64,000 bases of DNA from Malachius bipustulatus (Eukaryota; Arthropoda; Insecta; Coleoptera; Melyridae), in NCBI GenBank assembly GCA_910589415.1, contig OU342639.1, forward strand, positions 27,288,268-27,352,267, read 5' to 3'. Shown in pieces: positions 16,107 through 60,794 of this stretch (its first letter is position 1; every line of letters starts with the position of its first letter). The notes beneath the pieces are model-generated. The model saw only the letters and a program-made list of their open reading frames with translations. It did not search any database and was not told the origin of the DNA. The translations under genes and the position numbers were made by a program.

Positions 16107-16141
16107 ATGCCTGACCCCCCGGGGGGGGGGGTCCCCCACCA
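16107..16141 (+). other. C6G11 homopolymer junction near ORF1 start
   Basis: ATG at 16,107 is followed by a run of six C and eleven G. The frame downstream of the run stays open into ORF1, but the ATG is in a different frame. A one- or two-base error in this run would restore the start, so a sequencing or assembly error is as likely as a real mutation. Confidence 0.5.
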
Positions 16142-16231
16142 GGAGAGGGTAGAAGCAATAACGAGGGTGAAGCAAAATCTGAAAGAAAGACTCTAAAATA
16201 TGAAGCAACTGATAAAGGTCCTTATCAAGTT

Positions 16232-17497: not shown

Positions 17498-20400
17498 CAC
17501 CCTTTCTTACACCCCTCATATAAAAGTACTGCAGTGGAATATTTCCAGCTGCAGAAGTAAGAAAGATCACTTAATTTGGTTAATTAATGAACATCAACCT
17601 GATTTAATATTTTTAAATGAAACTTGGTTAAAACCCACGGATAATTTTACGGTGAGTGGCTTTAATTGTCTGAGACAAGATCGCGTCGATGGGTATGGTG
17701 GTATAATCACAATGATTAAAAAGAGGCAACCATTTAAGGTCATTACTACTAACAACGCACATCAACCTGGTCGTTGGCAGTCTATCGCCATACAGACACA
17801 TGGTATTACCTTTGTTAACATCTACAACCCCCCTGATACCAGACTAACATCCCAATTTTGGGAAAGTTATGTAGGATCTTGTGGAACCTCAGTTGTTGTG
17901 ATGGGAGACCTGAATGCGCATCACCCTTTGTGGGACACCACCCCTATAAACAGAAGTGGCAGGATTATTCAGTCCTCACTTGAGGAACTGGAGTTGGTTG
18001 TATTGAATGATGGAAGACCTACATTGGTTAGATCACCTGCATCCCAACACATAAGTGCAATAGATTTATCGATTGTTACCTCCAATCTGGCAACCACGGC
18101 ATCATGGACGGTGTGTGATGACCCAAGCACTAGCAACCACTATCCCACCCTATGTACAATAAATACATTTAACCAGCCGACACCCCCAAATCCATATACA
18201 CCTAGGAGAATATTTAAAAAAGCCAACTGGGAACTATATATGGACACTGTGTTAGAGAGGCTAACGGGAGAATCATCAGTAACATATGATTACCTGATGT
18301 CAGTCATTAATGATGGTGCAGAAATTGCAATTCCAAAATCGAAACCTCCCAAAAAGCCTAGAAGGATACCCGTTCCTTGGTGGGATGACGAATGCACTAG
18401 TGCTATGACGGAACGTAAGAACGCCATTAACAACTTTAAAAACAACTGTTCTATGGAGAATTTTTTGACAATGAAAAACACCATAGCAAGAACCCATAAA
18501 TTCCTCAAGAACAAAAAAAAAGATAAGTATAGAACTTTTTGTGCCACCCTAAATAGGGAAACTGGACTAACAAAAGCATGGAAATTTTTCAAAGCAATGT
18601 CAAGAGCTAGAAATAATTGTAGCGTTGTTCTACCATCGGCTCAGGTAGCTGTTGATATTCTAAATGCAATCTCAGTGTGCAATATACTACCAGACTTCCG
18701 ACTTAAGCCGCGAACGGAGAACTATGAGCCATTTAACATGAATGAGCTACAAATGGCATTAAATGGGAAAAAAGATACTGCAACTGGGATGGATCAGGTT
18801 TCCTACTCCATGCTAAGAAACCTCCCTGAAGCAGCGATGAATTCTCTCCTTTCTCTCTACAATCGTTACTTAGAAGGTAACGCTATTCCTCAAGAATGGA
18901 AAACTTACTTGATACACCCCATACTGAAAGCTGACAAAGATCCAAGCGCGGCTGATAGCTACAGACCAATAGCAATGTCTTCCTGCATAGGTAAGACACT
19001 GCAGTCAATGATAAAAAACAGAGTGGAATGGCAGATGGAAAACACTGGTATCTTACCGCAACTGCAGTCCGCTTTCCGTAAAGGTAGGTCGGTCACAGAT
19101 AATGTACTATATCTAACCACATATGTTCATCTGAGCTTCAGCAGGAATATGCACACGCTTGCAGTCTTCTTGGATTTAAAATCAGCTTTTGACAATGTAA
19201 ACATTTTCACATTGTACGAAATTCTCGTTGACGCAGGCTTCCCAATCTCACTCACCAACTTAATATTGAATTTGCTGACTGACAGACAGGTATATGTAAA
19301 GGATAATCAGGGCAATATCCATGGACCCGAAATTGCTACCCAAGGACTCCCGCAAGGATCATCGTTGAGTCCAATTCTATTTAATATATATTTAAATATA
19401 ATAAGAGACTTCCTACCTCAGGACGTTAGCATAGTGCAGTATGCGGATGATATATTGCTGCTATTTCGTGGTCAGAAGATCGCTGAAACAGTAGAAAGGA
19501 TTAATGGAGCTTTGATATTGTTAGAAGATTGGCTACAATCATTGAATTTAACGGTTTCACCATCTAAATCGGTAGCTGTGCTATTTACGAACAAGAGAGC
19601 ACGTAATACCGCTGGATATACAATCACAATGGCAGGAAGTATTATACCTTGGAAGGAACATGTCAGATATCTCGGAGTCATCTTTCAGGGTGACCTGTCC
19701 TGGTCAAGACATGTCGAACATATAAGCGGTAAAGCAGTCAGAGGGCTAAACCTTCTGAGAGCTTCGGCTGGAGTTTGGTGGGGAGCTGATCCCGTTATCC
19801 TGAAAACTATATATTGTGGCCTGGTGAGGTCGCATATAGATTATTGCTGCCAGATATTGAAACCAATCACTAAGCAACTGAGTAATAAACTGGACAGAAT
19901 CCAGTATCAAGCATTGCGAATTGTTCTGGGATGCATGAGATCGACTCCGACTAATGCACTGCTTTCTGAGGCTTCGGAACCCTCACTTGAACACAGACGG
20001 AGGTGGCTAGCAATGAAATACACCATTGGACTGAGGAAAATAATCAACCACCCACTTCATCAATTGATTTCTGACTTGGAAAAATATTGCGCTGAAGGAC
20101 TAGGATATTGGAGGAGAAGGGATCATCCTTATATTGTACATGCTTCCAGAGCTCTGAAAAGATACGAGCCACATTTAGTTCAGACTTCCACACCTGCCTG
20201 TTTCCTGATAGAGCTAGACATACAGTTGGAGAGATTACACTTCTACGAACCGGATTTTAGGAAAGACGAAGACAATGCGAAGGCTTTCCTGGAATACATC
20301 AACACTAATTGGCAAAATCACACAGCAATTTACACTGATGCTTCATTAAACCCAGAAGCAAAAAAAGTAGGCGTCGGCGTATGGATTCCCGAGATAGGAT

Positions 20401-21194
20401 ATAAATTAAAATTAAGATTGTCCTCCTTTACCCAGATATATACCGCGGAAATAATTGCCATAAACATTGCAGTTGAATATGCACTTAAAAATAACATAAA
20501 CAATGCTATCATATGCTCAGACTCTAGGAGTGCCCTACAGATGATATGTCAACAGAGCTATAAAAGTTCAACCTGTCAATTGTCGTTACTCACCAAGCGA
20601 CTGATCATTGAGTCGCGGCAAGCTGGACTGGGCATAGAACTGGTCTGGGTTCCAAGTCATACAAATATACAGGGCAATGAAATGGCTGATCAACTCGCTA
20701 AAGAGAGCTTGTCTCTCACCTCCTACGAAAAAATTAAAATAGATCCGGTCAACATTAACCCAATAGTCAGGCAATTGCTACAGTCTCAGTGGGAAAATGA
20801 ATGGAGAGAGTCATTTAATTTGAAGGGCAAATGGTATTATTCCATTCAGGAATATTTTCCTGAAAAAATGTGGTTTAAAAAATTTCCTTTTGTAAACCGC
20901 AGGCATATCAGCACAATTATACGAATGAGAACTAGCCATTGTCTAACTGGAAAACATAAACACAGAATTGGGGTGGCCGAGAATCCATATTGTGAATGTG
21001 GACAGATCGAGGATCTGGATCACATTTTCTTTGCTTGTCCTATTAACTTTCTGCAGGATTTTGATATATACAGAGAACTTGTTTCTTGTGGCATACCCTC
21101 TCCACTAAATATTAATACTGTCTTAGGATGTCTCACTTTTCAGACGTCAAGTATTTTAACAAGGTTTCTCCAAATTAATCATATCTTCTTATAA
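17433..21194 (+). CDS. I-clade retrotransposon ORF2 (endonuclease-RT-RNase H)
   Basis: 1,253 residues, uninterrupted. Residues about 30-250 form an apurinic-like endonuclease (LQWNISSCRSKKDHL, LNETWL, VVMGDLNAHHPLW). RT spans about 470-760 with SAFRKGRSVTDN, LDLKSAFDNV, GLPQGSSLSPILFN and the catalytic QYADD at about 669. RNase H lies at about 965-1110 (YTDAS, AEIIAIN, SDSRSAL, HTNIQGNEMAD). A Cys/His cluster follows (CECGQIEDLDHIFFACP). It nicks target DNA and reverse-transcribes the element RNA. All catalytic motifs are present, so it may be active. Confidence 0.93.
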   Translation: MNRMTQKTRMQKCPVNPIFRTNTLSYTPHIKVLQWNISSCRSKKDHLIWLINEHQPDLIFLNETWLKPTDNFTVSGFNCLRQDRVDGYGGIITMIKKRQPFKVITTNNAHQPGRWQSIAIQTHGITFVNIYNPPDTRLTSQFWESYVGSCGTSVVVMGDLNAHHPLWDTTPINRSGRIIQSSLEELELVVLNDGRPTLVRSPASQHISAIDLSIVTSNLATTASWTVCDDPSTSNHYPTLCTINTFNQPTPPNPYTPRRIFKKANWELYMDTVLERLTGESSVTYDYLMSVINDGAEIAIPKSKPPKKPRRIPVPWWDDECTSAMTERKNAINNFKNNCSMENFLTMKNTIARTHKFLKNKKKDKYRTFCATLNRETGLTKAWKFFKAMSRARNNCSVVLPSAQVAVDILNAISVCNILPDFRLKPRTENYEPFNMNELQMALNGKKDTATGMDQVSYSMLRNLPEAAMNSLLSLYNRYLEGNAIPQEWKTYLIHPILKADKDPSAADSYRPIAMSSCIGKTLQSMIKNRVEWQMENTGILPQLQSAFRKGRSVTDNVLYLTTYVHLSFSRNMHTLAVFLDLKSAFDNVNIFTLYEILVDAGFPISLTNLILNLLTDRQVYVKDNQGNIHGPEIATQGLPQGSSLSPILFNIYLNIIRDFLPQDVSIVQYADDILLLFRGQKIAETVERINGALILLEDWLQSLNLTVSPSKSVAVLFTNKRARNTAGYTITMAGSIIPWKEHVRYLGVIFQGDLSWSRHVEHISGKAVRGLNLLRASAGVWWGADPVILKTIYCGLVRSHIDYCCQILKPITKQLSNKLDRIQYQALRIVLGCMRSTPTNALLSEASEPSLEHRRRWLAMKYTIGLRKIINHPLHQLISDLEKYCAEGLGYWRRRDHPYIVHASRALKRYEPHLVQTSTPACFLIELDIQLERLHFYEPDFRKDEDNAKAFLEYINTNWQNHTAIYTDASLNPEAKKVGVGVWIPEIGYKLKLRLSSFTQIYTAEIIAINIAVEYALKNNINNAIICSDSRSALQMICQQSYKSSTCQLSLLTKRLIIESRQAGLGIELVWVPSHTNIQGNEMADQLAKESLSLTSYEKIKIDPVNINPIVRQLLQSQWENEWRESFNLKGKWYYSIQEYFPEKMWFKKFPFVNRRHISTIIRMRTSHCLTGKHKHRIGVAENPYCECGQIEDLDHIFFACPINFLQDFDIYRELVSCGIPSPLNINTVLGCLTFQTSSILTRFLQINHIFL

Positions 21195-29900: not shown

Positions 29901-32900
29901 GTGGATTTCGGCTGCAGAAACAGAAGATTTCTGTTTGCCTTGTAAAGCAGCAGCCAAAAGCGCGCTCATTTTGCTCTGGATTACTGGATCCTTCACTAGA
30001 GAAATTTGTTCAGAGTTAGAAGCAGCAATTCGGAACACTTGTCCCCTGCCTGGAGGAATCAAATTAATGGTTTGACCTACTGGCATTTGCCTGGTGTAGA
30101 TCACGCTGCCTTGAATTGGTTGTAAGCTTACAGTATTTGTGGTGTTCTTAACCGGAGATTTCTTAGGTGTACTGCAGTTAGAGCTCCCACTTCCTTCCAC
30201 GTTGCTCAAGCTACTGTCATTAGATTCCGCACTGCTTTGATATACAGATTTCCCGAAAGCTTGCTGAAATTTCGGAAGGGTAGATTTGCAAATCAATTGC
30301 AATATTGTTCCCTGGCCAGATGAAGGAGAAGTAACTACAGTTTTAACTCCAGATATTGAATTCTTAATGGAATTTGAAACAGGCACATTATTTATTTCGG
30401 TTGATGGTGTTTGACCATTGTTGACCTGAAATGATTTTTTCACATAATTTTTACCGTTCCTTTGTGAATCGGTTAAAAAAAGAACGGACCACATGTGATC
30501 AATGAATGAATAAAGTGTAAGAATGAAGACAAAACTACAATAGAGTGAGCTGTGAAGCACTGGGTGTTAGAATGGGATCCAAGTTTTTATAATGAAAGTC
30601 AACTTAGCAGCTGTTAAAGTTGTTTGTTTTGACGACCCTTCCTCATCATCAATAGAATTTATTATTACATTTATAATAGGATTTTTTTATTTTCTTTGTA
30701 AATCTAGTTTTTCTTGTAAATCTAACTTTTATAAATAACCCAAATAATGGGTCAATAAAAAAGAAGGAATTTCTTCCCACGATACCTATTTTTTTTTCCT
30801 TGTTATCTCAAAATTGCAGCAGTCGATCAAACTTAACGACTTGTTCAAAATAATTTTTGTTGAAAGAGTTTATAAAGTGTTAATATGTATCCTGATTTTT
30901 TTAGACTTCCAATTACATTATAAAGTTAGAGGGAATTAAACATTAAAATTAGATAATAAATAAATTCTAAAATTAATTCAACTCTGCTATTACTTTTTTA
31001 ACAGGGGAACAGGAGTGCTCCATTATTCAACTCGTCTTATCAGGATAACGTCGGCCCTGTTACAAGGGACCATCATGGTTCACAATTCAATGCGAACCAT
31101 AACAGGCGTTACTTAGAAGACCGGACTGGATCCGTTACGGATACCTCCCGGTCAGCACTCTGTTTCAGATCCCCGATTTTGACTCTTGGCCCATCTTTAA
31201 AAATTTGCCAACGTAAACATCGAAGGAAGTAAAGATAAAGGATGTAATTTTTGCGAAAACCCCTTGGAATTGTTTTCTTGGCTGATCCTTTTAAAACACC
31301 AACAAACTTGTCGTAATTTGATGAAACTGGTGGAATCCAACGAAGAGTACTGTCCACTGATTTACTGAATTTCGTCCAGTTGGCTTTTTGAAAATTCCAC
31401 CTTGGTTTGGGTATTGATGATACAAGGGGAATTTGAACACCAATATTTAGGATACTCGGTCGATGTTGACTATGTGGAAAACTTTTCAGCACTTTTCTGG
31501 AAGTCTGTAATAGTCTATAATCGTTATCCATGGAGATGTTTTAAAAGGATCAGCCAAGAAAACAATTCCAAGGGGTTTTCGCAAAAATTACATCCTAGGC
31601 TGGTCTCAAGAAACCAAAGATTTGTTTCAACAATATTCAAACAATCCATCTCATGATAATGCAAACTTGATATTAAATCTTTAAACAGTGCAAGGAAAGA
31701 TAAGTGGAATACGTTAATGGAGAGTATGAATTTTACTCATTCAAGTCGTAGTAGTTGGTCTTTACTGCGAAAACTAGAAACAGCCAATCAACGAGAGGAA
31801 ATCCAATCGAAAATATCTCCAAATGCGATAGCTTCTCGATTAGTCAAAGTGTCGAACATGATAAACATTGACAAACATCAAGTCAATCAAATGAAAAGGA
31901 CTATACAAAAACTAAAGAAGCAAGCAGAGATTTCCGAAGAAATAGGACAACCCTTCACCTTCGAAGAATTGAAAGCAGCCATCAAGTTAACTAAAATCAG
32001 AAAAGCTGCTGGCTTTGATGGAATTTACCCAGAATTTTTGAAACACCTGGGAAATTTTGCAAAAAATTGGTTACTGTCCTTCTTCAATGACATATTACTT
32101 TCAGGGAAGTTACCTGCCGAGTTTAAACAGTCAAAGGTTATTGCAATCTTGAAACCAGGGAGAATAGCAGATGATCCAAGTAATTATAGGCCTATATCAT
32201 TGCTAAGTGTATGTTATAAGGTGATGGAGAGGATGATTTACAACAGAATTTCTCCTTTGATAAATGATATGCTTCCCCAAGAACAAGCTGGTTTTCGTCC
32301 AAACAGAAACTGTTGTGATCAAGTATTATCACTCACTACTCACATCGAAACAGGTTTTCAAAAACAGCTGAAAACGGGAATTGCCTTAATTGATCTAACA
32401 TCTGCATATGATACTGTTTGGAAAGATGGCCTTCTTCACAAATTATACAAAACCATTAACTGCAGAAGAGTTGTCAATAATATGCTATCAAAGCGGAAAC
32501 TTCGAGTTTTCATTAATGAAAAAAGCAGCAAAGTCAAATACCTGAATAATGGACTTCCTCAAGGATCAGTACTAGCGCCATTATTGTTCAACTTATATAC
32601 CAGTGACTTACCAGAGACTACCTGCAGAAAATTCATATACGCTGATGATTTGGCTCTTTCTTATCAACATAAACGTTTTGAAGAAATCGAAAATGTACTA
32701 AATGAAGACATCCAAATAATGGTAGACTACTTCAAGAAATGGCGTCTTTGTCCCAATCCCAACAAAACCGAAGTATCTTGTTTCCACCTGAACAACCACG
32801 AAAAACATCGAAAATTACAAGTCTCGATGGACAATGTAATCTTGAAACACAATTTCAATCCAGTATACCTTGGAGTAACTTTTGATACTTCATTAACCTA

Positions 32901-35900
32901 CAAGCCGCATATTGACAAATTGCGCAAGAAACTTAAAACAAGAAACAACCTTTTACATAAACTTGCCAGTTCGGATTGGGGAGCTCATGCAGACACATTA
33001 AGAGTTGCAAGCATCTCACTTGTGTATTCTACGGCCGAATATTGTTGCACAATCTGGATGAATAGCGCTCATGTCCATAAAATTGATTCTGAATTGAACA
33101 CCACCATGCGAGTTATTACTGGTTGTATTAAGTCAACTCCAACACCTTGACTGCCGGTAATTTCAAACATTACACCACCAAGAATCAGAAGACAAATAGC
33201 GGCTAAGCGAGAATTCGACAAATGCACACCGGAATTTCCAATCTGGCATGATCTTCAGAATCCTCCTACAACAAGACTGAAATCTCGAAATCCATTTTAG
33301 CAACAAAATCATGAGATCTTTTCCCCACTGGATTCTTGGAAGTCTGAATGGAGAGTTCAGAATGTTTTCAATCATCACCTTATCCAAGATCCAACAAAGG
33401 AAGTTCCCGGATTCGACCTACCGAGAAAGCTCTGGAGTAAACTGAATCGTTTAAGAACTGGCCATGGACGTCAGTGTCAAAGATTTCATTTCATGCAGAT
33501 TCAATTCTAACTGATTTTCTGCGTATTCAGCGTTTGTGTAACTCATTTTAAAATCAGTTAGAATTGAATCTGCATGAAATGAAATCTTTGACACTATCTG
33601 ACGTTTATTTAATTAAGTTATTGTTTTGTTTCCTGCTCAATTTACTGTCAAAGCTCAGCCATCTTGTTAAAATTTACTTGAAATTTAGAAAGTTCCTGCG
33701 ACGCATCACCTATTAGAATGACGTTTATCTCGATAACAGTTCACTCTATCGAAAGAGATAAGGATACATTTTTTATGTAAAAAATGTCAAATAAAAAGAA
33801 AATTAACCTAAAAAAAACTGTAAAATTATTATTTTTATTGTTTTATTTCAAGTGAATGAGGAGGTTAGGCCATCCCGACGTCTATGTACGTGCTACCAAA
33901 GATTATGAAACACTATTCTAAAAAGTCCAAAATAATACAAAATAAGACCAAAAATTATCAAAATCGTTCAAGAAATAAAAAAGTTATTGCAAAAAATTGA
34001 TTTTCAACCCTCAACTTCAACAGCTAATATCTTTGTAGGGGTGTCTCTGAGGAATTAATTTTATAGCTATTTTTTCATTTATTTTTACTAAATTTACCCA
34101 AATCCGGGAGATTGCCCACGTATTATGGGACACCCTGTATACATATCAGGAGATAATGAGCAGTAAATAAAATTAAGAAGGCTGAAAGTGTTAAAGAGAA
34201 AGGTGAATTCGTGTGCCAAAATTAAGAAGAATATAGGTGAGAAAATTGAAACAAAATAAATATACGTGGGATGAAAATAATATAGGTATTTATTTTCAAC
34301 AACAGTGAGCAAAATTTTTAATAATAAAATAGGAAGAACAATACAGGGTGTCCCAGCTCATTCGAAGCGGTCTCTGTAGGCCAAACGATTGGTTTTTTCA
34401 AAAAAATTTGTGAATTCATGTAGGTACTATCCCATGATGTAGATGGAATGTTTATACAGGGTGATAAAAAATTTGAAAAAGTCAGATTTCTCCACGCGTC
34501 GCCAAATAAAAAAAAAAACAAGAAAGTACAAATGTTTCTATACCATAGGATAGTATATAAAAAGTTAAAATAGGGACATGTAAGCCGTTTTTCTCCATCT
34601 TGAACCGTTTTCGTTGTACAGGGCTTTGAACTTGAAAAATGACGATTTTCACTTGTTTATAACTCAAAAACTTCTGAATTTAAACACCAACTGTAAAAGC
34701 CAATCTTATTTTCTCTTCTCAGACAATCTAAAAATGCAATAACATAGGAGCATTCCATTTAAAAAAAAACATAACTTTGATATGCCACTGTCATATGGGA
34801 CACTCTGTATGCTCCAAAATAATTTTAAATTATGGCCATTGTGATCCTGTACATGAATTTTCAAAAAGTTTTTTGAAAAAGTCCATCGTTTGGCCTACAG
34901 AGACCGCTTCGAATAAGATGGGACACCCTGTATATTTAGTTGGAGATTTTCAGAATGTTTATAGATAATGTATATTGTATGTATATCCTATAAAGGAGTT
35001 TCCAAAACTAGTTTCAGTTTGGGCGAGAACCTAAAAATGCCGAAACTGGAGCCAAAAAACTAAAAACCGGAAGTCAGCCATATTTCCGCAACGAAGGTCC
35101 AAATCCAAAAACTTCAAATAAAAAAACGTTTCGTCTTGACGAGACCTACACGGCCCTTACCGTTGTCTAAATCGATCTGGTACACCCTGTATATCCAGGA
35201 TGTCCCAGCTCATTCGAAGCGGTCTCTGTAGGCCAATCGATGAACTTTTTCAAAAAAAAAAAAATTGAAAATTCAAGTACAGGATCACAATGGCCATCAT
35301 TTAAAATTATTTTGGAGTATACAGAGTGTCCCATATGACAGTGGCATATCAAAGTTATGTTTTTTTAAATGAAATGCTCCTAATGTTACTGCATTTTTAG
35401 ATTGTCTGAGAAGAGAAAATTAGATTGGCTTTTACAGTTGGTGTTTAAATTCAGAAGTTTTTGAGTTATAAACAAGTGAAAATCGTCATTTTCCAAGTTC
35501 AAGGCCCTGTACAACGAAAACGGTTCAAGATAGAGAAAAACGGCTTACATGTCCCTAACTTAACTTTTCATGTACTATCCTATGATGTAGTTAAAATATT
35601 TATACAGGGTGATAAAAAATTTGAAAAATTCTGAGATTTCTCCACGCGTCGCCAAATAAAAAAATCAAAGAAAGTACAAATGTTTCTACACCATAGGATA
35701 GTACATGAAAAGTTAAAATAGGGACATGTAAGCCGTTTTTCTTTATCTTGAACCGTTTTTGTTGTACAGAGCCTTGAACTTCAAAAAAGGTGATTTTAAC
35801 TTGTTTATAACTCAAAAACTTCTGAATTTAAACACCAACTGTAAAAGCCAATCTTATTTTCTCTTCTCACCCTGTATACAGGTGTCCCAGCTCATTCAAA

Positions 35901-44900: not shown

Positions 44901-47900
44901 CAACTGTTGCAGTACTTCACCGTTCTCTTCGATTGGTCTTGTTACCGACATTGTAATATATATCTGAGATGCTAAATTTGCTACCCCAATGCTATTTTTC
45001 CAAATCTTGGAAACTTTCACGCGTTTTTTGTAAAATCGTTTCACAACATCTACACCTTCTGTTAACCGAATCATTTTGAGCTGAAAAGAAACAAATACAA
45101 ATTAATTGGAAACTCTAGATAAAATAAAAATATACAGTGTCAGTTTTAACTTAAAACAATTGTCATTCTGATTCTGATAAATACAACAAAAATACCCGGC
45201 TAAGTGACCTTCTTCCTAGCTACCCTTCTAACAAAAGACGTAAAAACAAGCACAATTTGATGGTTTCTGGCCTATTGGAATCTATAATGCGGTCGTATAT
45301 AAATTCTATTACCGATTGAGATTCGAGACAGTTAGTCTGTCATATTCCAAAGTGGCCTGGAATGATCGTCTACTGTGCCGTTTGAAACATGTCAACTGGC
45401 AATATGGGACATTCGGGAACGTAACCGTTTGTGAACGTCCTGTTGTCACCTGTCGGTTTCTATGATTTGGACAGATTTTGATATCACGGCGATTTCTAGT
45501 GCTTGTACCTAACACAACACAGGAAAAGACTCTTTTCTCTCTCTCTGGGGCAACAGCAGAGCATCAACACACCCGCAAGTTCCTCTGGGTAGATCCCAGG
45601 ATGTAGGACAGGGAAAATTAAAAAGTCAGGATCATCTATACCTAAAGAAATCTGGTTCATTTTCAAAAACTAAGACAATTGATGTCTTAAAATTAAGATT
45701 GAACAGAATTGTCACCACATTAATTGGGGTAGGAAAGCCAAATGAAATCAAATGTCCATAAATAATGTCGAAAGTATCTAGCTTGTTATTGGGCATTCTA
45801 AAAATAATGAAATAAAAATAAAATAAAATAAAATAAAAGGTACGGTGGGTTTGGCTTGTGCCATAGGATACACCCCAGACAGCGATAATGCATGTAGCAA
45901 GTATTTTTAGTATTATGTATTTAGCAAGTAGCTAAAGCCCCTACTGGGCGTTGCTAGACAAAAGATGAATGACATGTTGTCAGATAACATGCCATTCAGT
46001 GATGTTGTGCTGTGAGTAGAGCCAAAAATTGTAGATACGTGTTTCGTCCTGTTTGGGACTCTTCAGTACAATGTATCTACCAACACACAGCCCAGTTTTG
46101 ATCCCGTATCCCGTGAGTGGAAGAATCCAATGAAATAAAAATAAAATAAAATAAAAGGCACGGTGGGTTCGGCTTGCGCCATAGGATACACCACAGACAG
46201 CCATAATGCAAAAAAAAGGGTGGTCTAGGTCTTCACCCCAATTCTATTTTTGTGTTTCCCTGTAAGACAATGGCCAGTCCTCATTCTAATAATGGTACTT
46301 ACTAATGTGTCTACGATTTATGAACGGATATTTTTAAAACCACATTTTGTTTGGACAATGTTCCCGGAATGAGAAATACCATTTACCTTTTGACTAGAAG
46401 GTTTGTTTAGTTCTAGGGATATTATTTTCCGGACCTACCTTAATTTTTTTTATAATTAGCTAGGGACAGACACTCTGTTTTAGCAAGTTGATCTACTACA
46501 TCATTACCCGTTATATTAGTATGGCTTGGGACCCAGCTTCCCCTGCCTCAGAAATTAATCTTTTTGTGAGCAGTGACAGATGACAGATCGAGTCTATGTA
46601 GTTGGCTCAACATATCATTTCCAGGGCACTCTTTGAGTCTGAACAAAAAATGACCGTACCGCGTGCTTTAGGTTCTCTTACAGTGTGTGGCTCACAGCAC
46701 GATTGATAGCAATAATCTTGGCAGTAAGTTTCTGAGAAATCGAGGAGAGTCTTGTTTGGAATCTATGCCCACTTTCAGGAACAAAGACGCCTATGCGGAC
46801 TTTTTTTGTTTCTGGGTTTAACAATGCATCTGTATAGATAACTGTGTGATTTGGCCACCTGGTATTGACATGATCTAAAAAAAACCCTACCGTTGTCTTC
46901 GTAGCTCTTCATAGTTCGACTATGTACATTAATAAAAAACCGCAGATTGTATGGGGGTCACTTTTAATTCCCTCACACCTGGGATCTCTGATACCTAAAA
47001 GATACAAGATCCCTTAAATTGGCAAAAATTTGCACAATTTTTTACTTATTAAGAATCCGAAAGAAAGTTCTGTAGTCGATACCTACTAAAATGCTTTGAA
47101 AAACCTGAAAAAATGAAGTTTATTACAAATAAATTACAATTTTTTCCAAGTTTACATAAGTCGCCAAGCAACTATCAATTTGAATTTTTTAAAAATTGGG
47201 TCAACTATTTTTATAACTATTTTTAATTCGTAGTCCGAACAGCCCTCCAACATTCTAAAGAAATTAATTATCCCGGTAGTCCGAACATTCGTCCAAAAAT
47301 ATCCTTATAATCCGAACAGCTAGCATGCTGAACAAAATTTCAAGTACTTCCCGGAAAAAGAAATAAAAAAATTAGTTACTGCAATAAATGCCCCACTGCA
47401 AGTAAGTACATACCTACAAGGAATTTTACAACAAGGTGTAACATTACAACAGTTTATGATGAAGAAATGATCTTTCTTTGTGCGTTTACAAGTGGAAACG
47501 CGACTTCGTATTTGGTACAGACTTTAAAAGTGTATAATGAAAAGTTAAACAAAATTCAATTTTACTTACTTGATTCGATAGTTGGTCAAATTTTTTGTAT
47601 TTGAACAGCAGAATTGCTTGTATATCATAAAGAAACCACAGTTGTACATCAGTAGCTTGTAATTTAATATTTTCTTCCAAACATATTAAATAGTACCTCC
47701 TATATGCAGAGACGAGATTTAGGGCTAGATCTTCACATTGTGACTCGCACAATTTTCTAAGTCTTACAGAAACCAAGTAAGCAGTTTCCATTTGGAAAAA
47801 TTCTTTTTCTGTAAAGATTAGTAGTAATTAGAATGAAATCATAAAATGTAAATATAAAACAGCAGCTTCTTGTTGTAAGAGATAAGGAAACATGAAAATA

Positions 47901-56900: not shown

Positions 56901-59900
56901 CGCGTACTGTTGAAGTTCACTCTTTTGGGGCCACCCTTTTTATCGGAAGAGTCCGAAAGGCACTATTTGAGAAGTATTACGAGGCAGAGTACTATGCGGT
57001 GCTTTTCCATTGCCTTCCACAAGGTGCATCCCGATTTTGGCTCGAGTAGCACAACAAATACTTTTCGGCTGCTGGTGAGTTTCGAACAAGGTTTACCGGC
57101 TGGTGGACGAACGCTCTATCCACTACACCACGGGACCCACTTAACGAATTTACATCAACGAGATCACTGTCACTATAAAGCAAGTAAGTAATTGGTGTCA
57201 AATCGAATCTAAAAAAACAAATTTACTTTAGTAATGGCCGTACAGTATACTAATGAAGAAATTAACGATATGTTATTGGTTTTTGGATATTGCCAAGGAA
57301 ATGGTTTAGGATCTTGCAGATTATCAGTGAACGATTTCCGAATCGTCGTTTACCAAACCATAAAACCTTTAATGAAAGACGTCTTCGTGAAACAAGGTAG
57401 GTTTACGCCTGTTTCTATTAATTAAGGTCGTGCACGTACGATAAGAACTCCAGAGGTTGAGGAAGATATTTTAAATAGGATTAAAGAAAATCCTAAACTC
57501 AGCACCAGACGATTGCGCTTAGAGCTAGGTGTATGCAAAGATACTGTTAACAGGGTGACCACAGAACAATTACTGCACCCATTTCATGTTGAATGGGTAT
57601 AAGACCTTTTACCCCATGATTATGAACCACGTCTAGCTTTCTGCCGGTTCATTTCCAAGAAGAATCAGGATAGGAACTTTACACAAGGAATTTTATTCAC
57701 AGATGAAGCCTGTTTCACGCGGAGTGGCATAACTAATTTGCACAATGTACATGTCTATGCTGGAGAAAATCCTCATGTGATTAAAGTAAGCCATTACTTA
57801 TCAAAAGTAAGCCATTATCAGCATGAGTTTAAGATCAATGTGTGGGCAGGAATCATAGACACTTTCATAATTGGTCCTGTCATTTTACCACCTCGACTTA
57901 ATGGCGAAAATTATTTGGAACATCTGCAAAACGAATTACCACACTTGTTTGATCCCCTGCCCTTGGAACTTCAAAGATGAATGTGGTTTATGCATGACGG
58001 TGCTGCTCCACATTTTTCGATAAATGTACGTAATTATTTGAGCGAACAGTATCCAAATAGATGGATAGGTAGAGCCAATGATGCACCCACAAGTTGGCCA
58101 GCTCGATCGCCTGCTATGACACTTTTTATGGGGAACTTTGAAAACCCTTGTGTCTTCTAGGCCATAGTAAATACAGAAGGTTAATTAAGGAGACGTATTG
58201 AAACCGGAATGGACGTTTTTAAAAATGATCACGAAATGCTCCAAAGAGTTCAATTTAATTTTTTAAAACGTATAAATCTTTGTATACACGAAAATGGAAA
58301 TCATTTTGAACATTTGATAGAAGCATTTTTTTTATTAAATTAAACTAAATTTTTGTTGTTGATAAATCTCTTATTGACTGTTTTAACTAAAGCACCTATA
58401 AAGTTAAATCCACATTTATGTACCTAGTCGTTTTTTTGTAGCTTTCAGTGACAGTTATTTTAATTCAACGCCTTTGCTTCAAATTGTGTTCAATTAATAC
58501 AATTACTTACTTAGGCCTGGCCATGCACGTAGTGATTTTCTTGAATCCAGATATCTCAGAAACGGCTGCTCAAATCAACTCTTACCACGTATGCCTTTTT
58601 TTGGTAAAAGACGTTGGAGAATAAGAATTTTTATTTAAAAGTTAAATACAGAGTGGCCCAAAAAAGATAGTTCATTTTGAATGTGTTCAAGGTACCGCAG
58701 GTGGCGCCCACTAAATTTTACAATAAAAATGATTGCAGTTTTTAATTTTTCACCCCACAAAAACCCCTTCAGCCGAATATTGTGAAAATATACCAATTAT
58801 TAAAAAAGTTATTTAAGAAAAACGGAAACCAAATTGAACTTTTGACACCCTGTATCTCCGAAATCATCCACTTTTGGACAGAAATAAGTTGGGTTAGATC
58901 GGCTTATTTAGGCCTCAGGAATTTGTGGTAGCTTTTTTTCCGCACCTTTCAGAGACACCCTGTATATTCCCTAATCCGCACATATTCAGAGTAGCAAAAT
59001 ACGGGCTAGTCCGAATATTCGCTACTCAGAACAACCATGTGCGTAATATAATTCAGATTAGCGGGACTCTACTGTATAATAGAAAAAAGTAAAAATTAAA
59101 ACAGTTATTCCGAACACAGTACATGATTTCCACTATGGTTCCACAAGAATTGAGATAGTTCATTTCATTGCAGGTAATCCGAGAAAAATCAAAGAATATT
59201 TCAGCACACGACTAAAAGGTTTGAGATTTTGCACAGAAAAACGTTTGACGTTTCTATCAACAATTAATGTGTAACCTAGGCTTCATAAACAAAACAATTC
59301 ACAACAATAGGATCTCCAACTACAGAGAATAATACACATGAATACATAGCAATCATATTATTGTTACTTATAAATACTTATGACAGGTCAGGTTTTTGCC
59401 TTTAATAAAATCTCCACTTTCGGCAGCCAATATCTCGGAATCCCTTCATTATTTATGTTTGCGCCCATGAAGACTTGACCGACATTTTACACTACTACAC
59501 TAGTTGTTTTAAAAGTAAATTGAGTGAAACCCAATTTCCATTTAAAAACTGCGGGGTCCTTTGAAAAAGTACCATATTATTATTAGTGACTGCCAATATT
59601 TCAAATTTATTACTGGAATTGTGGAATTAAATCATATGTGCAGAGAATAATCATAACAGCATGAAGAGGAATCTTTTGCAGATCAAATAAATTAAATAGA
59701 TTCGAAGAACCCCCGGTTATCCTGTTGTTTAGTCTTCCAAAACACCCCTCACATGCCCATTCCACTTTTTCCACTCGCGTCTCTCACAGCAGTCACAGTG
59801 TTGCTGCATTAAATCAGGTCTTTGGTCAGGCAGGGTAGGTTTTTTTTTTAATTTTAGGGACATTTAAAGGAAAAAAAACCTACCCTGACCAAAGACCTGA

Positions 59901-60794
59901 TTTAATGTAGCAACCCTGTGAGCCACGCGAGTGGAAAAAGTGGAATGGGCATGTGAGGGGTGTTTTGGAAGACTAAACAACAGGATTACCGAACCCCCTT
60001 CCCTAATTTATAATTTATGTTTATACCAAAGGTTCGAGATTGTTCTGTCAAAATACGATCAAACATTTCATTAGCAAAACAAACAAAACATAAAAAAAAG
60101 AAAAATTAATGCATCAATGTTTCTAAAGATCTACTACAATACCAACAGTAAAAGTGATTTCATAAAACCTTTACTTTTGTTAGAATTCAACAATTCCCTT
60201 GTACATAATTTATTTCAGGGCCTGCATAGTGCATAGTATTAGAAAGCAATATTCACACCTGCAGGATTAAATGTTTTCAAGCAGGAGGTTGTATATTTTC
60301 GCTCTCGTCTCTAGGAGACTCTGGATAATTGGCCAAAGCAATGAGTAGGTATGTGTTCAAGTTACCAATACCAACCCGCTGTACCTTTAAAACTTGTGAT
60401 GAGGATGGGATGTTATGATAGCATGACTTCAGTGATCTCTTGTAATTAGATCAGAGAATCAGGGGGACTACTCAATTAGGTTTCATGTAAGCAGGAAAAA
60501 ATGTAGGTTAGTGAATTAAATTAAATGTTAAATGTAGTACCTACTCATGAGTAATAAACCCATTACAAGAGATAGATAAATGGTGCAATGTTAACAACAG
60601 AGGCAGGTACCTACTTACATGCAATCCTAAGGTACCAACCTCAATACCTCTATAAATCCATTAGAGTGTGGTGAGGACCAAAGCTTTATGAAATCACTTT
60701 TACCATCGAAATATAAAATATTTAAAAAAATACGTGCTTTAAATGCTTTAAAAGCTTCCTTCTCCTTTTCGTTTTTTTCGTTTAGGGAGCTCAT
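22769..60794 (-). CDS. Large unrecognised nuclear-type protein, 11 exons, 2,963 residues
   Basis: Exons (minus): 60794-60648, 48351-48159, 48098-47922, 47808-47570, 45080-44775, 44710-44217, 41371-38148, 37099-36849, 30425-27977, 27853-27690 and 24016-22769. They sum to 8,892 nt, and every junction keeps frame. Residues 1-518 are mostly helical, resembling an alpha-solenoid, ending in a possible CKYH...CDHC zinc site. Residues 519-1593 begin with a SUMO-type IKPEP, then Ser/Glu/Asn/Gln-rich repeats and a more ordered region. Residues 1594-2548 are Ser/Thr/Gln-rich, with basic patches (SKRKKSS) and a helix FDILAEYAEQLRNSPDLNNK. Residues 2549-2963 hold a conserved-looking RDPRQGALQLSMQRKQAVLE segment, a His/Gln tract, acidic runs and a basic C-terminus. 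The composition suggests a chromatin or transcription regulator. I do not recognise the family. Confidence 0.8.
24017..25883 (-). other. Intron 10 segment of the large gene
   Basis: AT-rich and non-coding. CAGTAGAACCTCGATTATAA at about 24,131 resembles a lone MITE end. A diverged frame at 25,050-25,349 (minus) has no recognisable domain. Nothing else is supported up to the foldback at 25,884. Confidence 0.4.
25884..26747. mobile_element. Foldback element with about 285-bp arms
   Basis: Ends TACAGGGTGGTCCAACTTAA and TTAAGTTGGACCACCCTGTA, flanked by TA on both sides. Arms 25,884-26,168 and 26,461-26,747 are near-perfect inverted copies around a 290-bp centre. Non-coding. It lies in intron 10 of the large gene. 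Confidence 0.88.
26902..26942. repeat. (AAT)n microsatellite
   Basis: About 13 tandem AAT units followed by TTTTATTAGCCATGC. The arrangement resembles the simple-repeat tail of a minus-strand non-LTR element, but no coding remnant directly follows. Confidence 0.7.
27148..27625 (-). pseudogene. 5'-truncated jockey-type LINE, C-terminal remnant
   Basis: A 109-residue minus-strand frame (27,292-27,621) reads FSFVSYADRHKFSALLFLHG, ILHMLKFKIPRLTAQ and PASRTKNLHKFSPLHDICG. This follows the pattern of the region after RT in insect jockey/CR1-type polymerases (SDRHK..S..FL...NNK.D...L). An (AAAT)n tail at about 27,150-27,165 marks its 3' end. It lies in intron 10 of the large gene. Confidence 0.7.
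27690..27853 (-). CDS. Large gene exon 10
   Basis: 164 nt, acceptor TTTTAG, donor AAGGTAGGT, residues 2494-2548. Only the frame that begins with one carried-over base is open (DDGMNAVERVQSVLVTPSQV...). This forces the upstream exon to end with one extra base and so selects the GC donor at 27,976-27,975. The SQVNNGP word echoes QVNNGQT at the start of exon 9. Confidence 0.78.
27975..27976 (-). other. GC splice donor of intron 9
   Basis: The minus strand reads AAAG|GCAAGTAA, the standard consensus for a GC-AG donor (AG|GCAAGT). Using it keeps frame into exon 10. The alternative GT three bases further on would give a stop codon after the first codon of exon 10. Confidence 0.7.
27977..30425 (-). 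CDS. Large gene exon 9 (Ser/Thr/Gln-rich)
   Basis: 2,449 nt, acceptor TTTCAG. It encodes residues 1678-2493. Most is low-complexity Ser/Thr/Val/Gln sequence. An ordered-looking island, RIFDILAEYAEQLRNSPDLN then NKPAPRRRSNPP and SKRKKSSGVSKK, may be an interaction helix plus nuclear localisation signal. Poly-Gln and Thr runs are typical of transcription co-regulators. Confidence 0.85.
31109..31531 (-). pseudogene. Inverted 5' segment of a jockey-like LINE
   Basis: A minus-strand open frame encodes HSQHRPSILNIGVQ, PKPRWNFQKANWTKFSKSVD and VLKGSAKKTIPRGFRKNYI, the linker between endonuclease and RT. The last segment is repeated in the opposite orientation at 31,533-31,600 at the start of the sense part. 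The segment thus lies head-to-head with the rest of the element, as expected from twin priming. Confidence 0.75.
31533..33518 (+). pseudogene. Jockey-like LINE reverse transcriptase (decayed)
   Basis: The sense part starts at VLKGSAKKTIPRGFRKNYIP and runs through a 477-residue frame (31,717-33,150) with RKAAGFDGIYPEFLK, NYRPISLLSVCYK, EQAGFRPNRNCCDQ, LIDLTSAYDTVW, GLPQGSVLAPLLFNLY and FIYADDLALSY. A TGA at 33,148 and a TAG at 33,298 interrupt the frame, and a shift follows. The C-terminus (KLWSKLNRLRTGHGRQCQRF) is recognisable to about 33,490. It lies inside intron 8 of the large gene and is inactive. No 3' tail was seen. Confidence 0.85.
33473..33595. repeat. Perfect 46-bp inverted repeat with 31-nt loop
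   Basis: Arms 33,473-33,518 and 33,550-33,595 are exact reverse complements, beginning AGTGTCAAAGATTTC and ending GAAATCTTTGACACT. The left arm is the C-terminal coding sequence of the jockey-like element, so the right arm is a copied, inverted piece of the same element. Confidence 0.9.
34342..34932. mobile_element. Foldback element, AGCGGTCTCTGTAGG family, copy 1
   Basis: Ends TACAGGGTGTCCCAGCTCAT and ATGGGACACCCTGTA carry the subterminal AAGCGGTCTCTGTAGGCC. A non-coding interior of inverted segments (TACTATCC..., AAACGG...). Located in intron 8 of the large gene. Confidence 0.8.
35190..35876. mobile_element. Foldback element, same family, copy 2
   Basis: Begins with a diverged CCAGGATGTCCCAGCTC and AAGCGGTCTCTGTAGGCC and ends CACCCTGTATA. 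Internal blocks match copy 1 but in rearranged order. It abuts copy 3. Confidence 0.65.
35877..36617. mobile_element. Foldback element, same family, copy 3
   Basis: Starts TACAGGTGTCCCAGCTC and AAGCGGTCTCTGTAGACC and ends near GAGCTGCGGGACACCCTG. The interior contains further TACAGGGTGATAAAAAATT segments. The three copies together form a 2.3-kb cluster. Confidence 0.65.
36849..37099 (-). CDS. Large gene exon 8
   Basis: 251 nt, acceptor TTCAG, donor CAGGTAAAA, residues 1594-1677. After a Gly/Asn and Ser/Thr start, it carries two copies of one motif: LINILSQQILKPTQR and VINILSQEILRPANA, 17 residues apart. The duplication may form a repeated binding helix. Function unknown. Confidence 0.82.
37100..38147 (-). 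other. Intron 7 of the large gene
   Basis: AT-rich, bounded by donor CAGGGTAAGT and acceptor TATTCAG. No inverted repeats or coding remnants were seen. Confidence 0.6.
38148..41371 (-). CDS. Large gene exon 7 (largest exon)
   Basis: 3,224 nt, residues 519-1593, acceptor TTACAG, donor CAGGGTAAG. It begins LSWLLEWRDLHRICIMYLNN and FVKELKFIDIDYSQFREIKP, where IKPE is a SUMOylation-type site. Next come degenerate Ser/Glu/Asn/Gln repeats (SENVRNENQ, SESQSESI). From residue about 1000 the sequence is less biased and looks folded (LPETLFMRSVVLKKYLIRIL ... IRRMKMNGIDHTTGQKGHNK). It closes with a basic KKTSKRKRKSED patch and an Ala/Thr/Ser tail. No domain was recognised. Confidence 0.85.
41542..42528. 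mobile_element. Nested foldback elements
   Basis: Outer arms (41,542-41,657 and 42,371-42,528) share GTTGAAAAAGTCC/GGACCTGAACTTTTTCAAC and TTAATTTACTTTCTATTGAT. Inside lies a second inverted pair, TACAGTGTGGTCCTTGG (from about 41,659) and CCAAGGAACACCCTGTA (to about 42,369). One foldback has apparently inserted in another. They lie in intron 6 of the large gene. Confidence 0.7.
43540..44110. mobile_element. Longer copy of the AGATACAGGG-arm foldback family
   Basis: GGCAAGAGATAC...GATGCTTAATAAGAATCTG matches the arm of the 447-709 element. Inside, CTTATGGCCGTCATATTG and AATATGGCGGCCATAAG form an inverted pair. It is decayed and lies in intron 6. Confidence 0.65.
44217..44710 (-). CDS. Large gene exon 6
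   Basis: 494 nt, acceptor TTGCAG, donor AAGGTAAGT, residues 355-518. Helical sequence (ALVIELYIRALTTDMNCLEK, LAEGFCKLADLLEDQVKVS) continues the preceding exon. WKCKYHPP and VVKCDHCNDW together could coordinate one zinc ion. Confidence 0.83.
44775..45080 (-). CDS. Large gene exon 5
   Basis: 306 nt, phase 0 at both ends, acceptor TTTCAG, donor GTGGTAAGT, residues 253-354. Predicted helices include IGVANLASQIYITMS, GEVLQQLLKLWFTG and AAHIYIFASTAHKV. No catalytic motif is seen. Confidence 0.83.
45510..45800 (-). pseudogene. Decayed I-clade copy: ORF2 end and 3' UTR
   Basis: On the minus strand ATGCTCTGCTGTTGCCCCAG, AGAGAGAGAAAAGAG and CCTGTGTTGTGTT closely match the 3' UTR of the intact element at 21.24-21.33 kb, and the ORF2 C-terminus precedes them in diverged form. 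The other half lies at 46,212-46,895, separated by the tandem element at 45,808-46,211. Confidence 0.8.
45808..46211 (-). mobile_element. Retrozyme-like tandem element, 322-bp period, with hammerhead motif
   Basis: A block with (TTTTA)n and GGTGTATCCTATGGC(A/G)CAAGCC (minus) occurs at 45,808-45,894 and again at 46,130-46,211, so the segment is one full unit of 322 bp plus a partial second unit in tandem. It has no ORF of note. The full unit contains a hammerhead-ribozyme-like motif at 46,016-46,080. It interrupts an old I-clade copy. Tandem units of a few hundred bp with a hammerhead match the description of animal retrozymes, small non-autonomous retroelements thought to be moved by Penelope-like elements. 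Confidence 0.65.
46016..46080 (-). ncRNA. Hammerhead (type I) ribozyme-like motif
   Basis: Read on the minus strand. Helix I is GUAGA/UCUAC and AUUGUA/UACAAU with an internal loop (3 against 7 nt). Next come the core CUGAAGA, helix II GUCC/GGAC with loop CAAACA, the core GAA, and a very short helix III (ACAC/GUAU, one mismatch). The cleavage triplet is AUC at 46,036-46,034. Core nucleotides agree with CUGANGA...GAA...NUH. Helix III could not close as a hairpin and would need dimerisation, as proposed for Penelope-associated hammerheads. Activity is untested. Confidence 0.7.
46212..46895 (-). pseudogene. Decayed I-clade copy: RNase H part
   Basis: Minus-strand sequence encodes TDALLNPETKKV, AKIIAIN and CSDSKSALEMIC in broken frames, paralleling YTDASLNPEAKKV, AEIIAIN and CSDSRSALQMIC of the intact element at 20.33-20.55 kb. 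RMRTGHCLTGKHKNRIGV follows. Several stops and shifts make it inactive. Confidence 0.8.
46960..47335. repeat. Foldback-family fragment plus pogo-like MITE fragment
   Basis: 46,960-47,220 resembles the AGATACAGGG-arm family (AAAAGATACAAGATCCCTTA). 47,226-47,335 (AGTCCGAACAGCCCTCCAAC, AAAGAAATTAATTATCC) matches the interior of the pogo-like MITEs at 3.9 and 55.9 kb. Both are truncated and lie in intron 4. Confidence 0.6.
47570..47808 (-). CDS. Large gene exon 4
   Basis: 239 nt, acceptor TTACAG, donor CAAGTAAGT, residues 173-252. Helical: TAYLVSVRLRKLCESQCEDL, ALNLVSAYRRYYLICLEENI and LWFLYDIQAILLFKYKKFDQ. The pattern suggests repeated helix pairs of an alpha-solenoid. Confidence 0.83.
47922..48098 (-). 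CDS. Large gene exon 3
   Basis: 177 nt, acceptor TTTTAG, donor AGGGTAAGC, residues 114-172. It encodes DDYEGKLISEIQETQKALGQ and NPWNDPTLDQLLKVRDLPIT. Helical and unremarkable. Confidence 0.8.
48159..48351 (-). CDS. Large gene exon 2
   Basis: 193 nt, acceptor TTTTTCAG, donor AAGGGTTAGC, residues 50-113. It encodes RFDYLLNNKHSSLTSKIETL and VIEILDWARLHTLNIVLTGE. It joins in frame with the small exon at 60,648-60,794 across a 12.3-kb intron. Confidence 0.8.
48869..49529. mobile_element. Foldback element in intron 1
   Basis: Outer inverted arms around TTCGTTTGTCCAT / ATGGACAAACGAATGC, and an inner pair TTTGTCAAGGTTCCATT / AATGGAACCTTGACAAA. About 660 bp, non-coding. Exact ends are uncertain. Confidence 0.65.
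49617..50060. other. GC-richer stretch, unrecognised
   Basis: The base composition differs from its surroundings (CACCAGCACC and GGATCC words, Pro/Ser/Gly-like codons), suggesting coding ancestry of a mobile element, but frames are short and interrupted. No family was recognised. Confidence 0.3.
50405..51430 (-). pseudogene. 5'-truncated jockey-type LINE with (ATT)n tail
   Basis: The minus strand begins within RT (LLYADDLKLFSSVTS near 51.40 kb), continues with HINNAVLSASRSLGFIVRKC and FSFARSKLEYGSLIF, and then in a shifted frame with LASVTFLYRLVSGGVDSPEL and RTNLYVHQVP. This is the usual RT-end to C-terminus pattern of insect jockey elements. GGGCAATAAACC followed by (ATT)n at about 50,415-50,430 is the 3' tail. 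Stops and frameshifts make it inactive. It lies in intron 1 of the large gene. Confidence 0.8.
51466..52182. mobile_element. Foldback element with AGAGTGTTCAACTGTGG arms
   Basis: AAAGGTTCATTAAAAAAAGA and its inverse near 52.15 kb begin arms that also share AGCGAAGCA/TGCTTCGCT and TTACTAATATTCGTCCG/GGACGAAAATTAGTAAAG. About 717 bp, non-coding. Confidence 0.75.
52183..53543. other. Intron 1 stretch, nothing seen
   Basis: AT-rich sequence of the large gene's first intron. No repeats with clear ends or coding remnants could be supported. Confidence 0.4.
53544..53919. mobile_element. TACAGGGTAATCCTGA-type MITE
   Basis: TACAGGGTAATCCTGAAATG and its imperfect inverse (ACGGGATCACCCTGTA) end a 376-bp element; GGCGGACACAT pairs with ATCCGTGTCCG. 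Non-coding. Confidence 0.65.
54115..54978. mobile_element. Foldback element with about 330-bp arms
   Basis: Ends TACAGTGTGACCCATTTTTT and AATGGGTCACACTGTA. Arms about 54,115-54,460 and 54,620-54,978 are near-perfect inverted copies around an A/T-only centre of (AAAT)n type. Non-coding. Confidence 0.85.
54979..55894. other. Intron 1 stretch, nothing clear
   Basis: No ORF with a recognisable domain and no closed inverted repeat was seen. Short minus-strand frames near 55.1 kb are not supported. Confidence 0.35.
56870..57147 (-). mobile_element. tRNA-derived SINE-like sequence
   Basis: On the minus strand, TGGTGTAGTGGATAGAGCG (A-box-like) is followed after about 25 nt by TTGTTCGAAACTC (B-box GTTCGAAAC). 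The spacing fits an RNA polymerase III promoter of tRNA type. The acceptor stem is not complementary, so it is not a working tRNA but a SINE head; the body runs toward 56.87 kb. It lies between the left arm and the transposase. Confidence 0.5.
57234..58343 (+). pseudogene. Broken DDE transposase
   Basis: Starts MAVQYTNEEINDMLLVFGYC (helix-turn-helix type N-terminus), then RTPEVEEDILNRIKENP and STRRLRLELGVCKDTVNRV, then the catalytic part: FTDEACFTRSG (first D), HDGAAPHFS (second D) and WPARSPAM where relatives carry SPDLTPLD. The third acidic position seems lost. In-frame stops occur at about 57,422, 57,599 and 57,978, and the C-terminus (HFEHLIEAFF) is still recognisable. It is inactive. The family resembles insect elements with a DUF4817-like N-terminus, stated from memory. 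Confidence 0.82.
59075..59714. other. Intron 1 stretch, nothing seen
   Basis: AT-rich, no closed repeats or coding remnants up to the 59.7-kb MITE. Confidence 0.4.
59715..59990. mobile_element. Merlin-like MITE with 8-bp target duplication
   Basis: GGTTATCCTGTTGTTTAGTC and GACTAAACAACAGGATTACC are the inverted ends, flanked by a perfect GAACCCCC repeat (59,707-59,714 and 59,991-59,998). The 276-bp element is nearly all hairpin, including AGGTCTTTGGTCAGG/CCTGACCAAAGACCT. A truncated copy is at 9731-9891. GG ends and 8-bp duplications fit Merlin, but hAT cannot be excluded. Confidence 0.8.
60648..60794 (-). CDS. Large gene exon 1 (first coding exon)
   Basis: 147 nt, 49 residues from ATG: MSSLNEKNEKEKEAFKAFKA, then RIFLNILYFDGKSDF and NGFIE, followed by the donor GAG|GTATTG. 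The charged start and the following helix agree with the helical exons that follow. Phase 0 joins exon 2 in frame. The GTATTG donor is weak, and the 12.3-kb gap makes this join the least certain in the model. Confidence 0.62.

What the first reader, a model, noticed from the sequence alone, without database searches (positions are those of the whole stretch)
45808..46211. Hammerhead-bearing tandem element (retrozyme-like) in an insect intron
A 322-bp unit is repeated in tandem (one full, one partial) and holds a motif that fits a type I hammerhead: CUGAAGA, a GUCC/GGAC helix, GAA, an AUC cleavage triplet and a two-part helix I with an internal loop. A short, imperfect helix III is the feature described for hammerheads of Penelope-like elements and animal retrozymes, which are thought to act as dimers. 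Unit length, tandem layout and (TTTTA)n tract all fit a small non-autonomous circular-RNA retroelement. The core and helix pairings are seen directly; the retrozyme assignment is inference.
Basis: partly seen in the sequence, partly recalled or inferred. Interest (0 to 1): 0.86.

Follow-up and report, generated by a model that had tools for sequence, protein, structure and literature searches.

The report
Ribozyme retroelement writing divergent paired arrays
This is an old copy of a 318-base element carrying a hammerhead-ribozyme motif; its younger relatives lie across the genome, many as back-to-back arrays inside short target duplications, each likely copied from one RNA circle by a Penelope-type enzyme that would start at two fixed RNA sites, one per cut DNA strand.

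Summary
Rfam Hammerhead_1 fits 46072-46028, minus strand, at 49.6 bits (cut-off 34), inside a 318-bp repeat (not 322). The copy is old: a base change breaks helix III, which is AC[ACGU]GU in young copies. I compared the 39 other loci listed in a host-genome search. They are dispersed insertions. In 22 (one further rearranged locus left out) units point both ways, and in 22 of 22 one outer end lies at unit position ~29 (A), the other at ~201 (B); 8 of 8 further loci, predicted before fetching, agree. 21 of the 22 carry a target duplication, 12-14 bp in 19, counting bases shared with the element. In 7 of 11 testable loci both arms share private or rare variants, pointing to one template. Penelope-like elements (PLEs) in this genome have the same divergent arrays; in 12 of 12 resolvable pairs one arm carries the known 'tail' and the other lacks it. 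Best reading: an animal retrozyme, likely mobilised by a PLE that makes a staggered cut and primes reverse transcription from both strands at two fixed sites of one circular RNA. Circle, helper and enzyme are inferred. The two-site divergent architecture appears in none of the retrozyme text I read.

The parts
45806..46210 (-). Old single-arm retrozyme copy, about 1.26 units, sense on minus strand; 3' end at site A (45806), 5' end near unit phase 267
   Evidence: alignment to a young unit, letters; no clear target duplication (longest shared flank string 6 nt)
45840..46157 (-). One full 318-bp unit
   Evidence: spacing 318; 318-bp stretch aligned to 20 loci
46028..46072 (-). Type I hammerhead motif; predicted cleavage between 46034 and 46033
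   Evidence: RF00163, 49.6 bits, full length
45954..45955 (-). Latent site B (second reverse-transcription start, an end in young copies but not here), 79 nt 3' of the predicted cleavage site
   Evidence: position of GTCTA|GCAAC; B defined
45806..45838 (-). (TTTTA)n tract ending at site A, the outer 3' end of this copy
46129..46156 (-). Internal (TTTTA)n tract with the unused upstream A site
45803..45892 (-). Direct repeat, copy at the 3' side
46121..46210 (-). Direct repeat, copy at the 5' side
   Evidence: 88% identity

Best explanation
The window holds an old 1.26-unit copy of an animal retrozyme whose young relatives include divergent double arrays of a ~319-bp hammerhead-bearing unit, likely made when a Penelope-type enzyme cut the target with a ~13-nt stagger and used each strand's 3' overhang to prime reverse transcription at a different fixed site (A or B) of one circular retrozyme RNA. 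Shown from sequence: hammerhead motif, unit, dispersed arrays, both arms 3'-outward, one A end and one B end at every classified double locus, target duplications of about 13 bp with microhomology at both junctions, private or rare variants shared by both arms in 7 of 11 testable loci, and the same divergent layout with one tailed and one untailed arm in co-resident PLEs. Inferred: the hammerhead cuts the transcript, a host ligase closes the monomer, the PLE reverse transcriptase runs round it several times from each primer, and the two cDNAs are joined where synthesis stopped. Single-arm loci would be events in which only one strand was extended.
For: A+B ends in 22 of 22 classified double loci of the first 39 and 8 of 8 held-out loci predicted beforehand. 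Target duplication above the 99% null in 21 of these 22 and 28 of 39 overall; maximal shared string 12-14 bp in 19 of 21, others 15 and 17. Junction microhomology averages 3.1 nt at A and 2.0 at B against a null of 0.36. Unit divergence: within arm 0.0013, between arms of one locus 0.0012, between loci 0.0145 (118 units from 31 loci); of 11 loci with full units in both arms, 4 have strictly private variants in both arms and 3 more have rare (<10%) ones. No indel within 8 nt of the cleavage site in 118 units. PLEs: 150 of 775 GIY-YIG candidates scored; neighbours within 8 kb are -+ 23, +- 2 (both between hits of different score class), ++ 33, -- 14; one tailed and one untailed arm in 12 of 12 resolved pairs of 15 examined. 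Two non-(TA)n pairs (fam2) show 13-bp shared strings (letters). PLE hammerheads lie 58-90 nt before the tail-less site in five families, counted by hand from letters; retrozyme B lies 79 nt after its cut. In vitro a lizard PLE cuts and extends both strands and starts at two internal RNA sites (PMC11167929, parts 1-3 of 4 read).
Against: No RNA, circle or cleavage data. A multimeric linear transcript could also give seamless homogeneous arrays. The helper is not identified: against all 44 PLE pieces held the unit has only short matches, the longest exact one 16 nt of AT-rich flank. The A-B distance is 147 nt against 33-39 nt for PLE tails. In the lizard PLE the start site did not differ between strands and was not homologous to the cut DNA (PMC11167929), unlike here. 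In one of the 12 PLE pairs (C13:45306424) the untailed arm stops about 13 nt short of its family's usual tail-less end. Without bases shared with the element, the duplicated core is only 3-13 bp. L024's arms differ by 3 sites, nearly as much as different loci. Five-prime ends cluster at 250-268 (9 of 59, expected 3.5, p 0.008; window chosen after seeing the data), which random fall-off does not predict. Only high-scoring (young) loci were seen. HHR sites are not significantly less variable than the rest (3/45 against 28/244, p 0.44). L033 and L034 were rearranged and left unclassed; L034 is a double locus with two A-like ends and no target duplication.
Confidence: 0.78

Rival explanations
1. 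Same element and same two-strand priming, but the template is a long uncut linear multimer transcribed from an existing array, not a circle.
For: Seamless unit joins are equally expected; recurrent ~1.26-1.30-unit arms with 5' ends near phase 259-268 (L040-L043, left arm of L044, the window copy) look like copies of a linear RNA with a defined 5' end that kept an uncut hammerhead.
Against: Double arrays reach about 18 units in total (L010, L011) with one variant set, which needs long homogeneous donors; an intact hammerhead (exact core in 112 of 118 units) would be expected to cut such multimers.
Confidence: 0.25
2. Divergent arrays come from cDNA snap-back (self-priming), as proposed for inverted PLE pLTRs in PMC3846280 (passages read).
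For: 3 of 22 centres have both arms at nearly the same phase (L010, L014, L038), and L010 and L014 sit on palindromes of the unit.
Against: 19 of 22 centres join different phases, those printed with short overlaps or filler, one with a 240-nt insert (L044). Snap-back fixes neither the second outer end at B nor its microhomology with the target.
Confidence: 0.06
3. A LINE (twin priming, as for L1) mobilises the element in trans.
For: LINE ORFs with EN and RT are present in the window; twin priming also gives inverted 5' parts (recalled).
Against: Two fixed start sites rather than one 3' tail plus varying sites; co-resident PLEs show the same one-tailed, one-untailed arms.
Confidence: 0.06
4. 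Ordinary satellite DNA expanded by unequal exchange, with an incidental ribozyme.
For: Tandem, homogeneous units.
Against: Dispersed over many contigs, fixed ends, target duplications, opposite-facing arms sharing private variants.
Confidence: 0.02

Closest known systems
Metazoan non-LTR retrozymes (Cervera & de la Pena 2020, PMC7229834, parts 1-4 of 6 read)
   Same: Type I hammerhead, tandem units of ~170-400 nt, GC below 50%, no LTR, target duplications longer than 4 bp when present, co-existence with PLEs, circRNA as proposed intermediate
   Different: Those parts describe dimers to multimers but no divergent arrays, no two fixed ends, no ~13-bp duplication; PLE help was a suggestion there
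Penelope-like elements with inverted pLTRs and an optional tail (PMC3846280 passages; PMC11167929 parts 1-3 of 4)
   Same: Divergent (head-to-head) copies, a 30-40-nt tail optional at one of the inverted ends, hammerhead upstream of the start sites, AT-rich targets, both strands cut and extended in vitro
   Different: Those encode RT and GIY-YIG endonuclease and have minimal hammerheads; here no such ORF, a canonical hammerhead, and start sites 147 nt apart, so strand assignment is unambiguous
Dolichopoda pDo500 and newt hammerhead satellites (search listing and text of PMC7229834)
   Same: Tandem hammerhead repeats; in newts a weak helix III that acts better as a dimer
   Different: Here each array is a bounded insertion, usually with duplicated target
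L1 twin priming (recalled)
   Same: Second target strand primes on the same RNA, giving an inverted 5' part
   Different: There the second site varies; here it is fixed and both arms can be multi-unit

Membership tests
Metazoan non-LTR retrozyme | Canonical type I hammerhead | tested here: met
   RF00163 49.6 bits (window), 53.0-58.7 bits in three young loci; loop-loop contacts not tested
Metazoan non-LTR retrozyme | Tandem units of about 150-450 bp, GC below 50% | tested here: met
   313-326 bp in the 11 loci; GC 0.46 young, 0.40 window
Metazoan non-LTR retrozyme | Dispersed insertions with target duplications longer than 4 bp | tested here: met
   28 of 39 loci above the 99% null; 12-14 bp in 19 of 21 double loci
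Metazoan non-LTR retrozyme | Non-coding; no LTR, PBS or PPT | tested here: inconclusive
   Longest stop-free run in a trimer 94 aa (+) and 39 aa (-); no LTR layout seen; PBS/PPT not searched for
Metazoan non-LTR retrozyme | Expressed as self-cleaved linear and circular RNA | not testable with these tools
   no RNA data
Metazoan non-LTR retrozyme | Mobilised by a PLE | tested here: inconclusive
   Same divergent layout and one-tailed/one-untailed arms in co-resident PLEs; no helper family identified
Penelope-like element | Encodes RT plus GIY-YIG | tested here: not met
   No ORF of that size in the unit; a PLE copy elsewhere in the genome has both domains (Pfam RVT_1 and GIY-YIG)
Plant LTR retrozyme | Type III hammerhead in LTRs, ~700 bp, 4-bp duplication | tested here: not met
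   Type I, ~319 bp, about 13-bp duplication

The most novel reading that the evidence does not exclude
Penelope-class retrotransposition is a symmetric double-strand reaction: the enzyme makes a cut with ~13-nt 3' overhangs, and each overhang primes its own rolling reverse transcription on one shared circular RNA at its own dedicated start site, so the long-puzzling PLE 'tail', inverted pLTRs, tandem copies and animal retrozyme arrays are all products of one two-site, two-strand, circle-templated mechanism.
Probability: 0.55. Interest if true: 0.9.

Novelty: new variant of a known kind. Interest (0 to 1): 0.78.

Why it matters
Who moves animal retrozymes, and how PLEs acquire tandem copies, inverted ends and an optional tail, are left open in the papers read. 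Because the two start sites lie 147 nt apart in this element, each array records which site primed on which strand, so a proposed mechanism becomes a countable genomic signature and a simple in vitro assay.

Tried and rejected
Looked for relatives in phage records (none). Rfam below gathering gave miRNA-like matches at palindromes, taken as chance. Rfam did not detect the PLE hammerheads; a regex did in five of the six families, the piece of family 3 lacking that stretch. Sequence sharing between the unit and 44 PLE pieces gave only short words, mostly AT-rich. Similar TTTRTC-type ends of fam1, fam2 and site B were seen by eye and are not claimed. HHR-specific constraint was not significant; the A-HHR-B half has fewer variable sites than the B-A half (11/170 against 28/149, p 0.001), which I report but do not lean on. 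Host taxon by protein search: no hit. A genome-wide census with RF00163 did not complete.

L033 and L034 (rearranged) were dropped from the double-locus count; L048 is the same locus as L025 and was not counted. L038's right end, L037's two inner ends and the C13:33287 target duplication were set or read by eye. The A and B classes were seen in the first 20 loci; the numerical windows were written only after all 39 had been seen. The 8 held-out loci were predicted in advance, though for one of them (C13:33287) the table already hinted at its left end. The six new loci with one arm listed were not fetched.

Full report
What is in the window. A 90-nt direct repeat with spacing 318 bounds one full and one partial unit at 45806-46210. 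The copy is old: its two repeat copies are 88% identical and it is 85.6% identical to a young unit. Its weak helix III comes from a change of GTGTC to GTATC; the exact young core is kept in 112 of 118 young units, and its ACACGUGU is self-complementary.

The family. A search of the 544-Mb host genome gave 198 matches with 40 of 1063 candidates scored; a second query gave 216 with 40 of 1203 scored. Counts are lower bounds and favour young copies. I fetched the 39 loci other than the window that the printed list shows (L009-L047). Units are 313-326 bp in the 11 loci tabulated; GC is 0.46 in one young unit.

Architecture. Of the 39 loci, 22 are double arrays with a reversed left arm and a forward right arm, so both sense 3' ends face outward; 15 are single-arm; L033 and L034 are rearranged and were left out (L034 has two A-like ends and no target duplication). 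In 22 of 22 double loci one outer end is at phase ~29 (site A, after TTTTATTTCAT) and the other at ~201 (site B, after CTTTTGTCTA); A is on the left in 13. Single arms end at A in 11 and at B in 4. I then wrote down the prediction and fetched the ends of the 8 new double loci seen: 8 of 8 have one A and one B. In classified loci arm lengths run from 0.36 to 13.7 units.

Insertion signature. A string shared by the two flanks exceeds the 99% null in 28 of 39 loci and in 21 of 22 double loci; L038 has none. Counting the bases that match both target and element, it is 12-14 bp in 19 of 21, and 15 and 17 in the others; without them the core is 3-13 bp. Microhomology averages 3.1 nt at A and 2.0 nt at B against a null mean of 0.36. 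In the held-out set the script gave 12-13 bp in 7 of 8; for the eighth it gave 10 bp, and I read 14 from the letters. This fits a staggered cut whose two 3' overhangs each pair with the RNA and prime (inference).

One template per locus. Among 118 units of 31 loci, mean divergence is 0.0013 within an arm, 0.0012 between arms of one locus and 0.0145 between loci. Of the 11 loci with full units in both arms, 4 have variants found in no other locus and present in both arms, and 3 more have rare ones; L024's arms differ by 3 sites and do not help. Indels cluster in the (TTTTA)n tract, and none lies within 8 nt of the hammerhead cut. The 59 inner 5' ends are scattered, 2 near the cut (expected 3.9), but 9 fall at 250-268 (expected 3.5, p 0.008, window chosen after the fact). 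The window copy, L040-L043 and the left arm of L044 share the resulting ~1.26-1.30-unit form; an arthropod-like initiator TCATTT nearby (motif recalled) suggests a transcription start, untested. The centres join different phases in 19 of 22 loci, against snap-back priming.

The likely helper. PLEs abound: 150 of 775 GIY-YIG candidates were scored, many in long open frames and tandem arrays; one frame tested has RVT_1 and GIY-YIG by Pfam. Neighbouring hits within 8 kb are -+ 23 times and +- twice, the latter between hits of different score class. I examined the outer ends of 15 of the 23 divergent pairs, in six groups set by GIY-YIG score; 12 were resolvable, and in 12 of 12 one arm carries the tail and the other does not. 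In 11 of these the untailed arm ends at the family's tail-less site; in C13:45306424 it stops about 13 nt earlier. Tails are 33-39 nt with ends chosen by eye. Unresolved: C4:27091991, C2:13685589, C14:42474894. Most families insert in (TA)n, where a duplication cannot be measured; the two pairs of family 2 show 13-bp shared strings by reading the letters. PLE hammerheads are seen by pattern, not by Rfam. From letters, the cut-to-tail-less distance is 58-90 nt in five families (the hammerhead of family 3 was not in the piece); in the retrozyme cut-to-B is 79 nt. No sequence match names a helper family: against all 44 PLE pieces only short words match.

Literature. PMC7229834 (parts 1-4 of 6) defines metazoan retrozymes and proposes PLEs as helpers. 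PMC11167929 (parts 1-3 of 4) shows a lizard PLE cutting and extending both strands with two internal start sites, without strand difference, and without homology to the cut DNA. PMC3846280 (passages) describes the tail as optional at one of the inverted pLTRs and proposes self-priming on antisense RNA. In PMC7761336 (passages) a term search found no 'head-to-head' and 'inverted' only in a reference. Searches showed, by title and abstract start, no paper on twin or two-site priming of retrozymes; three lists were cut, I opened only the four papers named, and the library lacks most subscription journals, among them two key PLE papers.

Judgement. Retrozyme identity is near certain. Two-strand, two-site target-primed reverse transcription is the best reading of the ends. 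Circularity of the template and PLE authorship are likely but inferred.

Noticed in passing
window 16115-21194 (+): Long non-LTR retrotransposon: a 460-aa ORF upstream and a 1262-aa ORF with endonuclease, RT and RNase H domains.
   Followed up: partly
window 31660-33150 (+): RT fragment (RVT_1, 124.6 bits) of another retroelement.
   Followed up: no
window 57603-57980 (+): ORF that by eye resembles a Tc1/mariner-type transposase fragment; not tested.
   Followed up: no
window 59794-59920, 9792-9903, 492-666: Palindromic stretches that draw sub-threshold miRNA matches, perhaps foldback transposons; not tested.
   Followed up: no
G000 C11:3382-82839: Contig with 6 reversed then 18 forward PLE GIY-YIG hits, mostly at a 3327-bp step: a PLE array of the same divergent kind, perhaps also copied from a circle.
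   Followed up: partly
L040-L043, left arm of L044, window copy: Recurrent ~1.26-1.30-unit arms ending at A with 5' ends at phase ~259-268; possible transcription start or strong stop.
   Followed up: partly
L011, L034, L045: Three insertions beside the same TATAATATTGGCTG-type target, apparently the palindromic end of another repeat.
   Followed up: no
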